64,000 nucleotides of DNA from Akkermansiaceae bacterium (GTDB taxonomy: Bacteria; Verrucomicrobiota; Verrucomicrobiia; Verrucomicrobiales; Akkermansiaceae), in the NCBI GenBank assembly GCA_947462535.1, contig CANHPN010000005.1:1-64000 (forward strand), given 5' to 3'. The translations under genes and the position numbers were made by a program. This document shows positions 34,897 through 38,424 of the stretch, piece after piece. Below the pieces are notes generated by a model, which had not been told where the DNA came from, did no database searches, and saw only the letters and a program-made list of their open reading frames with translations. Numbering within the stretch: position 1 is the stretch's first letter; every line of letters begins with the position of its first letter.

Positions 34897-36108
34897 ATGA
34901 AGGAACTCATCGAAGAACTCGAACGCTGGGGAGCGGATGTGATCTTCGGGCGCGCCAAGGGCCTGCGGGCGGCGCTGATGCGGTTCGCGATGCGGGCGCT
35001 TTCCGGGGTTTTCCGGATGATCGTGCAAATCCGGCTGTGGCGCTACCGCAGCGGCTGGCGCAGGCAGCATCATTTGGGGACGCAGGTGGTGGCCATCGGA
35101 AATATCACGGTGGGCGGCACGGGCAAGACGCCGGTGGTCGAGTTGCTGGCGAAATCGCTGCGCGACCGCGGCCGACGGGTGGCGATCCTTTCCCGCGGCT
35201 ACAAGAGCAAGAAGCTTGATCACCCGCAAAAGTGGCAGGACAAAAACGGCCGGGCGGTGCCGGAGGAAAAAATGCCCAAGGTCGTCTCGACGGGCAGCGC
35301 GCTTTTACTCGATTCGAAATACGCGGGCGACGAGCCGTTCATGCTCGCCCGCAACCTCGATGGCGTGGCGGTGGTGGTGGATAAGAACCGGGTGAAAGGC
35401 GGGCTTTTCGCCGTCGGCCAGCTTGATGCGGACACGCTTTTGCTCGACGACGGGATGCAGTATCTCGATCTGGCTCACTCGATCGACATCGTGCTGGTGG
35501 ACGCCGGTTCGCCGTTCGGGACGGAGGCGCTGCTGCCGCGCGGAACACTGCGCGAGCCGCCGAAAAATTTGCGCCGCGCGAGCTACATCCTGATCACAAA
35601 ATGCACCGGCAGCTCGAATGAGGCGCTGGTTTCCCGCATCCGGAAATATAACAAGACGGCGGAAATCATCGAGTGCATGCACGGACCGATCTATCTGGAA
35701 GATGTCTTCACGCGCGAGCGCCAGCCGCTGGAGTTCCTCAAGGACAAGTGGGTGGGGGCGATCAGCGCCATCGCGGTGCCGGAGGCCTTCGAGGGCTCGC
35801 TGGAAAAACTCGGCGCGCGGGTGGAAATCCGGCGGCGGTTTTCCGACCACTATCGGTTCTCGCGCAGGGAGGTGGAGCATTTTATGCAGCGCTGCGTGGA
35901 GCGGGACATGGAGATCATCGTGACCACGGAAAAGGACGCGGTGCGGTTTCCCAAGCCGGCCTCTATCGACGTGCCGGTCTATTTCCTGCGGATCGAGGTG
36001 GAAATCCTCAAAGGCCGGGAAATCTGGGACGATCTGGTCACGCGCGTTTGCAATCCGCCGCCGGCGTTCCAGTCGGTGCTGCGGAACCGGCACGCTTACC
36101 GGCCGTGA
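34897..36108 (+). CDS. lpxK: Tetraacyldisaccharide 4'-kinase
   Basis: 403 residues. LpxK phosphorylates the 4' position of the lipid A disaccharide precursor at the inner membrane. The P-loop is [12 protein letters not shown] (68-79), followed by [32 protein letters not shown] and DDGMQYLDL are the second Walker region and substrate motif, and [10 protein letters not shown] is also conserved. An N-terminal amphipathic/hydrophobic segment (about 27-48) anchors it. Longer than most LpxK (about 330) because of its N- and C-terminal parts. Presence of lpxK shows that this organism makes lipid A. Confidence 0.93.
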
Positions 36109-36250: not shown

Positions 36251-36961
36251 ATGATTTTGGGATTGATGGAAGCTTCTGGGTTGATCGAGCAGGGTGGCCC
36301 GCTGGTGTGGGTGCTGCTGGGTCTGGCGTTTATCGGCGCGGTGTGCGTGGTGGAGCGCTTGTTTTTCTTCCACCGGGCGCGGATCAACGTCGGGGATTTG
36401 CTGGTCGGCTTGTCGCATCACATCCGGCGACGGGCGTTCGCAGAAGCGTTGCACGAAGCGGCCCGCGCACCGGGGCCGGTGGCTCGCGTGGCACATGCGG
36501 CGCTACTGCGGTATTATTTGCCGCGCGCGGATTTGCGGGACGTGGTGCAGGAGGCGGGCCAACTGGAAGTGCCGCAGATCGAGAAAAACATCCGGGCGAT
36601 CCTCGGCGTTTCCTTGCTGGCGCCGCTGGTCGGGATGCTCGGAACCTTGATCGGGATGCTGGAAACCTTTCAAAAAGTTAGCGAGCAAGGCGGTTTCACC
36701 GGCCCGGCTGAGCTCTCTGCGGGGGTGTTCACCGCGCTGATCACCTCGGTGATGGGGCTGACGGTGGCGATCCCGCTGTATTTGTTTTACCTGTATTTCC
36801 TCGGCCGGGCGAAACGGCTGGTGCACCGGATCGAGCGGGCGGGGATTGAAATGGTCAATCTCATCGCGGACGCGCGGGAGGAGGAGGAATTCGCTCCGTT
36901 CCGCGGCGAGGTGACGGCGGGGAAAAAGCCGGTGAAGGCAAAACAGGAGCCAGCCAAATGA
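36251..36961 (+). CDS. MotA/TolQ/ExbB-family proton channel subunit
   Basis: 236 residues, three transmembrane helices. The family region LAPLVGMLGTLIGMLETFQKVSEQG and SAGVFTALITSVMGLTVAIPLYLFYLYF match ExbB/TolQ helices 2-3, including the conserved Thr in the pore. The ATG at 36251 gives a normal N-terminus; the upstream GTG/ATG at 36206 would add unrelated residues. The stop overlaps the ExbD-like start (ATGA), so the pair is translationally coupled. Confidence 0.9.
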   Translation: MILGLMEASGLIEQGGPLVWVLLGLAFIGAVCVVERLFFFHRARINVGDLLVGLSHHIRRRAFAEALHEAARAPGPVARVAHAALLRYYLPRADLRDVVQEAGQLEVPQIEKNIRAILGVSLLAPLVGMLGTLIGMLETFQKVSEQGGFTGPAELSAGVFTALITSVMGLTVAIPLYLFYLYFLGRAKRLVHRIERAGIEMVNLIADAREEEEFAPFRGEVTAGKKPVKAKQEPAK

Positions 36962-37410
36962 AACTGGAAATGACCTTGCCGGAGCGCCCGGGATTCCTGC
37001 ACGCGGTGCCGATCCTGAATATTTTCGCGCTGGTGCAGCTATTTTTCCTGCTCGGGCCGTCGCTGGTTTTGCAATCGGGCGTGGCGGTGGATCTGGCGCC
37101 GTCGCGGTTTCAAATGGAGCGCTATCAGGACTCGATCGTCGTCACGCTGGGGCCCGGCGAACCGGGGCCTCGGATTCACTTCGGGCGCGACGCGGTGACT
37201 TTGGAGGAGCTTTCCGCACGGCTCGACAAACTGCGGGCCGACGGCGCGCCGACGAGGGCGATCGTGCTGCTTCAGACCGACACGGGCACGCCGGTCGGGA
37301 TCGAGCGCGAGGTCACGGAGTTGGTGTTAGAAAGGGGATTTCGGCTGGCGCTGGTTGGGGAAAATTCGCCATCCGCAGTGGTTCCGGGTCCGAAAAAAAT
37401 GGCTGAATGA
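36958..37410 (+). CDS. ExbD/TolR-like protein lacking the membrane aspartate
   Basis: 150 residues, one N-terminal helix and a periplasmic domain, in the ExbD/TolR arrangement. In ExbD, TolR and MotB the helix carries an essential protonatable Asp (VPLIDV-type); here the corresponding sequence is VPILNIFALVQLFFLL with Asn21 (codon AAT). The periplasmic part (RIHFGRDAVTLEELSARLDKLR, IVLLQTDTGTPVGIEREVTELV) otherwise resembles ExbD. Either the protein does not conduct protons itself or a neighbouring acid substitutes. It overlaps both neighbours by four bases (ATGA). Confidence 0.82.
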   Translation: MKLEMTLPERPGFLHAVPILNIFALVQLFFLLGPSLVLQSGVAVDLAPSRFQMERYQDSIVVTLGPGEPGPRIHFGRDAVTLEELSARLDKLRADGAPTRAIVLLQTDTGTPVGIEREVTELVLERGFRLALVGENSPSAVVPGPKKMAE

Positions 37411-38204
37411 TGGCTGGTGGCATGGTCAAAGCGCGCAAGTCGGCGGGCGCTCCGGAGCTGGTGTTCCGCTGGGGCGCGAGCAACACGCCGCTGTTTCCAA
37501 AGCTGTTCGCGATGGTGTTCGTAGCTGCGGCGTTCGCGTTTTTGATCGGCTCGGTCCGGATCCGGGTGACGGCGTTGGAGAAATCCTCGCTGCAGAAGGC
37601 GGCGGTGATCTATCTGCGCGACGATCCGGAAGGGCGGGCGCTGACCTTGCGGGCGCGCGAGGGTGGGCCGTTTCCCTCGCGTTTCGAGCCGACGCAGTGG
37701 GAAGGCATGGCCGGGTTGGAAAGTGCCGCTCTTGATGCCGTGCGGTTCCAGCCGCAACCGTATGTGCCCGCGCTGGCGGATTTACCGGCGGGAAATCGGG
37801 TTCAGCCGCTGGAACTGGCGGCCAAGGGGCAGTCGTTTTTCCCGAAGCGCAGTCCGGCATCCGGTCCCGCGCCGGAGTCGGCCAAGCTGAAACTCGCGCC
37901 CGCGCTCTATTCGCTTTCCGGGATTTCCGCCGCGACGCTGCCGGAAGCTCTCCCGCCATTTGAAGCGCCGGTGGCTGGCGCGATGCCCTCGGCGTCCTGG
38001 CGCTTTCTCGTGCGGTTGAATCCCGATGGCGGCGTGGCGGAATGCGTATCGCTCGAAAAAGGCGGCGAGGCGGGAACTCCTGAATTGGAGGCCTGGCTGC
38101 ACAAAATCCGGTTCAAGCCGGAGCTCGGAAAACCTTTCCGCTGGATCGCCGTGGGCATCGGATTCACCAACCAACCCGTCGCCGATGGACCTGACGCTCG
38201 CTGA
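37407..38204 (+). CDS. TonB-like periplasmic energy-transducing protein (candidate)
   Basis: 265 residues. One N-terminal helix (about 30-48, PKLFAMVFVAAAFAFLIGSV), a Pro/Ala-rich middle, and a C-terminal segment (WRFLVRLNPDGGVAECVSLEKG, ELEAWLHKIRFKPE) resembling the TonB C-terminal fold. TonB usually has a Pro-Lys/Pro-Glu linker and about 240 residues. Placement directly after ExbB/ExbD genes with an ATGA overlap supports a TonB role; sequence similarity alone is weak. Confidence 0.6.
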   Translation: MMAGGMVKARKSAGAPELVFRWGASNTPLFPKLFAMVFVAAAFAFLIGSVRIRVTALEKSSLQKAAVIYLRDDPEGRALTLRAREGGPFPSRFEPTQWEGMAGLESAALDAVRFQPQPYVPALADLPAGNRVQPLELAAKGQSFFPKRSPASGPAPESAKLKLAPALYSLSGISAATLPEALPPFEAPVAGAMPSASWRFLVRLNPDGGVAECVSLEKGGEAGTPELEAWLHKIRFKPELGKPFRWIAVGIGFTNQPVADGPDAR

Positions 38205-38424
38205 TTTCGTGCTCTTCGTGCTGCTGGGCGTTTTCGTGCTGGTGCCTTTTCTCGCAGTGGTTTCGCGGACCCTGCATGCGCGGGCGGAAAAGCGTTCGCT
38301 CGCCAACCGCGTCATTTGCCGGCTCTGCCTGCACGCCTTCGAAGACTCCAGCCATGTGAACACCGTCAATTGCCCGATCTGCGGCGCGACCAATGAAAAG
38401 GGCCGCAGCCGCCGTCTCGGGTGA
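38185..38424 (+). CDS. Small membrane protein with a zinc-ribbon-like Cys pair motif
   Basis: 79 residues. One transmembrane helix (LADFVLFVLLGVFVLVPFLAV) followed by a cytoplasmic or periplasmic tail with CRLCLHAFED and CPICGATNEKG, two CxxC pairs typical of a zinc ribbon. It overlaps the TonB-like gene by 20 bases, so it belongs to the same operon. No known function; it may be a regulatory or assembly component of the motor (inference). Confidence 0.7.
   Translation: MDLTLADFVLFVLLGVFVLVPFLAVVSRTLHARAEKRSLANRVICRLCLHAFEDSSHVNTVNCPICGATNEKGRSRRLG

What the first reader, a model, noticed from the sequence alone, without database searches (positions are those of the whole stretch)
36251..38424. 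ExbB/ExbD/TonB-like operon in which ExbD lost the proton-carrying aspartate
The four overlapping genes encode an ExbB-like channel, an ExbD-like protein with Asn21 instead of the essential Asp, a weakly TonB-like protein and a small membrane zinc-ribbon protein. Since all ExbD/TolR/MotB motors use that Asp, this operon may be a motor of a different mechanism, a non-conducting complex, or a regulator of a canonical motor. I do not know of a described system of this composition.
Basis: partly seen in the sequence, partly recalled or inferred. Interest (0 to 1): 0.62.

Follow-up and report, generated by a model that had tools for sequence, protein, structure and literature searches.

The report
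Ton-like motor operon toggling its catalytic aspartate
A conserved four-gene membrane operon of Verrucomicrobiota resembles the proton-driven motor that powers nutrient uptake through the outer membrane, but the one amino acid that carries the protons (aspartate) has switched to or from its uncharged look-alike asparagine many times while the genes stayed under strong selection, which suggests that much of this family works without proton flow through that site.

Summary
Confirmed. Window 36251-38424 holds exbB-exbD-tonB-like-zinc-ribbon in one tightly overlapping operon between lpxK and lepA. ExbD residue 21, aligned to E. coli ExbD Asp25, is Asn (codon AAT). This is neither an error nor a recent mutation. 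The operon occurs across Verrucomicrobiota, and in 144 distinct ExbB/ExbD pairs the site is Asn 76, Asp 64, Thr 2, Ser 1, Cys 1. The switch occurred repeatedly: 20 parsimony changes on the full tree; 13 on a careful 94-row tree (11-14 over bootstrap trees, 7 on strongly supported branches). All 84 other ExbD-family genes checked in 11 of these genomes keep Asp. Asn forms are under purifying selection as strong as Asp forms. ExbB's Thr148-equivalent is invariant; the few Thr181-equivalent changes to Ala occur only without Asp. The third protein has a TonB-like C-terminal fold, but its TM lacks TonB's SxxxH motif. The genome has a separate canonical Ton locus with Asp.

Best reading: a phylum-wide Ton-paralogous complex for which proton transfer through ExbD-Asp is dispensable; Asn versions assemble but probably do not work as canonical proton-driven motors. 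Cellular role untested.

The parts
36251..36961 (+). ExbB-like protein, 236 aa. T132 = E. coli ExbB Thr148, S166 = Thr181, T161 = Glu176 position
   Evidence: Pfam PF01618 81.7 bits; profile aligned to TolQ/ExbB structures; one group against 27 other ExbB, support 90
36958..37410 (+). ExbD-like protein, 150 aa, one TM helix (model H13-39) and an ExbD-like periplasmic domain
   Evidence: Pfam PF02472 31.6 bits; AlphaFold model pLDDT 81 matches ExbD/TolR periplasmic domains; aligned to 6tyi ExbD
37018..37020 (+). codon AAT = Asn21 at the position of E. coli ExbD Asp25; one transition away from an Asp codon
   Evidence: sequence; alignments
37407..38204 (+). TonB-like protein, 265 aa: N-terminal TM helix without the SxxxH motif, proline-rich middle, TonB-like C-terminal domain
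   Evidence: AlphaFold model of A3, fold search top hits TonB CTD, E 0.009-0.16, prob 0.84-0.99; the Akkermansia orthologue hits PF03544 weakly, E 0.003; TM table
38185..38424 (+). small membrane protein, 79 aa, one TM helix plus C-x2-C ... C-x2-C zinc-ribbon-like domain, probably cytoplasmic (positive-inside rule)
   Evidence: sequence; four Cys kept in all 132 rows where the gene was found

Best explanation
The operon encodes a phylum-wide paralogue of the Ton motor: an ExbB pentamer around an ExbD dimer, presumably joined to a TonB-like trans-periplasmic arm and a small cytoplasm-facing zinc-ribbon protein. In the lineages with Asn, this window included, the ExbD side chain keeps its size and can still hydrogen-bond to the ExbB threonine ring, so the complex still assembles, but it cannot carry a proton. 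The conserved job is therefore most likely non-motor: a non-conducting trans-envelope scaffold, tether or regulatory complex, from which proton coupling has been removed (and perhaps re-added) repeatedly, while canonical Ton motors elsewhere in the genome do the energised transport. Shown: composition, homology, repeated Asp/Asn switching, selection, Asp in all other ExbD genes tested. Inferred: assembly, absence of proton flow, the scaffold role.
For: Asn 76 / Asp 64 of 144; 20 changes on the full quick tree; 13 on a careful tree of 94 rows, 11-14 over bootstrap trees, 7 independent contrasts on strongly supported branches. Asp in 84 of 84 other ExbD-family proteins of 11 genomes. Purifying selection equal in both states: Asn pairs ExbB dN/dS 0.02-0.08, ExbD 0.05-0.17; Asp pairs 0.03-0.10 and 0.07-0.17. 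No compensating acidic residue found among ExbB/ExbD columns. Thr148-equivalent invariant in both states. Thr181-equivalent changed to Ala in 4 lineages, all Asn; family Thr/Ser at the neighbouring site lost in 5, all non-Asp (together 8 lineages; non-Asp branches are 47% of tree length). Glu at the Glu176 position occurs only in Asp lineages. E. coli ExbD(D25N) is reported inactive (PMC11658791). The genome has one Pfam TonB_C gene near a receptor plug domain and an Asp ExbD on contig C11.
Against: Nothing here measures proton flow, assembly or function. Asp is kept, or regained, in almost half of the orthologues, odd if proton transfer had no value. Several switches rest on weakly supported branches. 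The neighbouring-site losses (165) are not at a residue conserved in E. coli ExbB (Ala there), and the four Thr181-equivalent losses alone are weak (0.47^4 = 0.05). The Glu176 link has few independent origins. Part of one family (L039, L045-L047, L062) keeps ExbBD without the TonB-like and zinc-ribbon genes beside it.
Confidence: 0.5

Rival explanations
1. Mixed motor: the Asn ExbD pairs in one ExbD dimer, or shares its ExbB, with an Asp ExbD encoded elsewhere in the genome, so that a half-active or tuned proton motor results.
For: All 11 genomes examined encode several Asp ExbD proteins; such a supply would make the operon's own Asp dispensable.
Against: The operon's ExbB and ExbD are co-encoded with overlapping genes and the ExbB form a group apart from the other ExbB; their ExbD TM sequences differ strongly from the canonical ones.
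Confidence: 0.15
2. A real motor with another ion path or energy source: proton or sodium passage through other residues (for example the acidic residue at ExbB 138, at the periplasmic mouth), so that Asp or Asn at site 21 is only structural.
For: ExbB 138 is acidic in 69 of 76 Asn rows and 41 of 64 Asp rows; Thr132 is invariant; only Asp or Asn is accepted in 140 of 144 rows.
Against: Independent pairs show no link between 138 and the Asp/Asn state; no other column changes consistently with the state.
Confidence: 0.15
3. Asp is restored after or during translation: deamidation of Asn21 or mis-incorporation of Asp at Asn codons.
For: Would explain why nearly only Asp and Asn are seen.
Against: The next residue is Leu/Ile/Val/Ala/Thr in the Asn rows, a context of slow deamidation (general knowledge); a full-length asparaginyl-tRNA synthetase is present in all 6 genomes tested.
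Confidence: 0.04
4. Decay: Asn versions are degenerating former motors.
For: In the 0.9-Mb genome G114 (Ser at the site) the TonB-like frame is broken; some lineages lack the two small genes.
Against: Asn genes in the window's clade and in whole families have intact frames and the same strong purifying selection as Asp genes; zinc-ribbon cysteines are kept.
Confidence: 0.06

Closest known systems
Ton motor ExbB-ExbD-TonB (E. coli, 6tyi; ExbD periplasmic domain with TonB 8p9r)
   Same: Homologous ExbB and ExbD, same ExbD fold, threonine ring of ExbB kept, a TonB-like protein with TM helix and TonB-fold C-terminus encoded next to it
   Different: Asn at the Asp25 site in half of the family, no Glu176 equivalent in most, no SxxxH motif in the TonB-like TM of the window's family, an extra zinc-ribbon membrane protein, no TonB-dependent receptor gene beside it
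Tol-Pal motor TolQ-TolR-TolA
   Same: ExbB profile scores best against TolQ structures; a periplasmic arm with TolA/TonB-type C-terminal fold
   Different: No TolB_N domain in 6 genomes tested; no TolB or Pal gene in the operon; TolR's Asp is not kept
vWA force transducers and TolQ-like/TolR-like clusters in the PVC group (PMC12204202)
   Same: Motor-derived trans-envelope systems of unknown function in the same superphylum
   Different: The pore-inserting vWA kind described there keeps the proton-binding Asp; no vWA domain here, and a zinc-ribbon protein instead

Membership tests
ExbB/TolQ/MotA family | MotA_ExbB domain above the curated cut-off | tested here: met
   81.7 bits against 22.9
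ExbB/TolQ/MotA family | Threonine ring (E. coli ExbB Thr148, Thr181) | tested here: met
   T132 invariant in all Asn and Asp rows; 166 is Ser/Thr in 136 of 140 of them
ExbD/TolR/MotB family | ExbD domain and periplasmic fold | tested here: met
   31.6 bits against 25.4; fold match to ExbD 8p9r TMt 0.82
ExbD/TolR/MotB proton motor | Protonatable Asp in the TM helix | tested here: not met
   Asn21 at the Asp25 position; orthologues Asn 76, Asp 64, other 4
ExbD/TolR/MotB proton motor | PMF-dependent ion flow and rotation | not testable with these tools
   needs reconstitution or a phenotype
TonB | TonB-type C-terminal domain | tested here: met
   predicted fold, top 8 PDB matches TonB/FusB CTD, E 0.009-0.16; no Pfam hit in the window protein
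TonB | SxxxH motif in the TM helix that contacts the motor | tested here: not met
   absent in the window protein and its family; present in several other families
Ton system for receptor energisation | Association with TonB-dependent receptors | tested here: inconclusive
   no receptor gene between lpxK and lepA; 5 plug domains elsewhere in the genome, one on contig C11 near the canonical TonB/ExbD
Tol-Pal | TolB with N-terminal domain | tested here: not met
   no TolB_N in 6 genomes

The most novel reading that the evidence does not exclude
A Ton-family rotary complex whose catalytic aspartate is evolutionarily switchable: one orthologous trans-envelope machine that exists in nature in a proton-coupled (Asp) and an uncoupled (Asn) form, showing that the 5:2 motor fold has a conserved function that needs no ion flow.
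Probability: 0.4. Interest if true: 0.8.

Novelty: new variant of a known kind. Interest (0 to 1): 0.6.

Why it matters
The TM Asp is regarded as essential in ExbD, TolR and MotB, and D25N inactivates E. coli ExbD. A family in which that residue switches between Asp and Asn repeatedly under unchanged purifying selection offers natural pairs of possibly coupled and uncoupled complexes, and makes directly testable what part of a 5:2 motor's function depends on ion flow. No paper found in the searched open-access library describes a natural ExbD of this kind or this four-gene operon; the library lacks most subscription journals.

Tried and rejected
Sequencing error or recent mutation: rejected, Asn in 76 distinct sequences and whole families. 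Pseudogene: rejected for the window's clade by dN/dS. Compensating acidic residue in ExbB/ExbD: 1527 column features scanned with independent pairs; no feature other than the site itself goes with the state in more than about 5 of 10 pairs, none convincing after that many tests. Mis-incorporation through missing AsnRS: AsnRS present. TonB His as the partner of Asp: no link, the SxxxH motif is absent in Asp and Asn members of the window's family and present in some Asn members of others. Sequence-profile search of the TonB-like protein against PDB and Pfam: nothing, only the fold search told. An initial reading of site 165 as a canonical pore hydroxyl was corrected after aligning to TolQ/ExbB structures. 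lpxK or lepA linkage as a clue to function: lepA adjacency seen only in close relatives, lpxK hardly beyond the nearest one. Literature on Akkermansia transposon mutants with ExbD: nothing.

Full report
What is there. Between lpxK (34897-36108) and lepA (ORF from 38425) lie four overlapping genes on the + strand: exbB 36251-36961, exbD 36958-37410, a third gene 37407-38204 and a small gene 38185-38424. ExbB and ExbD are clear Pfam members. ExbD residue 21 is Asn, codon AAT; a profile of its orthologues aligns this position with Asp25 of E. coli ExbD 6tyi, the residue described as essential and close to the ExbB Thr148/Thr181 ring (PMC6778125). D25N is reported as inactive in E. coli (PMC11658791).

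Where it lies. The window is contig C5 of a 2.8-Mb, 104-contig genome. Its genus in the search includes the genome whose contig matches that of Luteolibacter pohnpeiensis KCTC 22041 in length and position, so it belongs to the Luteolibacter group of Akkermansiaceae, Verrucomicrobiota (inference). ExbD orthologues were found in 75 of 79 relatives, 57 of 57 of the more complete ones. ExbB, ExbD and the ribbon gene occur in order in loci of the family, order, class and phylum; the profile search over 289 genomes of the phylum matched 219, but at that level it also picks up other ExbD genes (for example L216, L217), so the number is an upper bound. A tree of ExbB puts 42 operon ExbB on one side of a branch against 27 other ExbB of the same group of genomes, support 90, not decisive.

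The Asp/Asn site. Over 144 distinct ExbB/ExbD pairs the state is Asn 76, Asp 64, Thr 2, Ser 1, Cys 1. Within the order, the sampled members of families coded f2 and f6 have Asp and those of f3, f4 and f5 have Asn; the window's genus, the Haloferula-like group and Akkermansia hold both. On the quick tree of all rows 20 changes are needed; independent contrasts on strongly supported branches number 10, on all branches 17. On a careful tree of 94 rows: 13 changes, 7 independent contrasts on strongly supported branches, and 11 to 14 changes over 300 bootstrap trees. Direction cannot be read safely from parsimony; gains and losses of Asp are both possible. The site column was left out of the trees.

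Control. All other ExbD-family ORFs retrieved from G000 and ten further genomes have Asp at the site: 84 of 84 distinct sequences. So the relaxation is a property of this operon, not of the organisms.

Selection. Close pairs with Asn have dN/dS 0.02-0.08 for ExbB and 0.05-0.17 for ExbD; pairs with Asp 0.03-0.10 and 0.07-0.17. The TonB-like gene evolves faster (about 0.1-0.4) in both. The Asn forms are therefore maintained, functional genes. That nearly only Asp and Asn are seen (140 of 144), never Glu, Ala or Gly, indicates a kept structural or hydrogen-bonding role (inference).

The proton path. ExbB Thr132 (= Thr148) is invariant. Ser/Thr166 (= Thr181) is changed to Ala in four rows from four lineages, all Asn. 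Thr/Ser165, a family feature where E. coli has Ala, is lost in five lineages, all non-Asp. Taken together these are eight lineages, all on non-Asp branches, which make up 47% of the tree length (0.47^8 = 0.002, a rough figure framed after looking at the data; the Thr181 losses alone give 0.05). Glu at the Glu176 position is found only in Asp rows. No compensating residue was found. I read this as modest evidence that the proton path is less constrained in Asn lineages.

The partners. The third protein has no Pfam hit and no PDB sequence hit of note; its AlphaFold model (pLDDT 80; most of the C-terminal part above 90) matches TonB-type C-terminal domains in all of the top eight PDB hits, and the Akkermansia orthologue has a weak TonB_C hit. 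In many other families its TM helix carries SxxxH as in TonB, but in the window's family and in f4 that motif is absent, whatever the ExbD state; the SHLS motif residues are described as contacts of TolA/TonB to the motor (PMC12204202) and TonB(H20A) as inactive (PMC11658791). The fourth protein keeps four cysteines in every one of the 132 rows where it was found. The ExbD periplasmic model matches ExbD bound to TonB.

Canonical Ton elsewhere. The genome has five other ExbD genes, five receptor plug domains and one Pfam TonB_C gene, the latter on contig C11 near an Asp ExbD and a plug domain. The operon is thus not the only Ton apparatus. A 0.9-Mb genome of the class (G114, endosymbiont-like by size) keeps exbB, exbD (Ser) and the ribbon gene with no plug domain at all, while the frame between exbD and the ribbon gene is broken.

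Conclusion. The likeliest mechanism is a motor-derived complex whose conserved role does not need proton transfer through ExbD; in the window's lineage it would be a non-conducting trans-envelope scaffold or regulatory complex. Mixed assembly with Asp ExbD from other loci and an alternative ion path remain open. Function itself was not tested by any search here.

Noticed in passing
L209 1600-4100 (G114, 0.9-Mb genome): exbB, exbD (Ser at the site) and ribbon gene intact, but the TonB-like frame between them is in pieces; the genome has no receptor plug domain.
   Followed up: partly
L039, L045, L046, L047, L062: Asn-type exbB-exbD kept while the TonB-like and zinc-ribbon genes are absent downstream (other genes follow).
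   Followed up: partly
window:37407-38204 and orthologues: The SxxxH motif of the TonB TM helix is present in many families of the phylum but missing from the TonB-like protein of Akkermansiaceae and family f4.
   Followed up: partly
L044, L065, L203: No ExbB match beside an otherwise intact exbD or ribbon gene; possible frameshift or assembly fault.
   Followed up: no
Akkermansia loci L187, L188, L190-L195, L205, L206: Akkermansia species split into an Asp group and an Asn group; the Asn group has also changed ExbB 161 to Arg or Gln and 165 to Leu/Val/Ala.
   Followed up: partly
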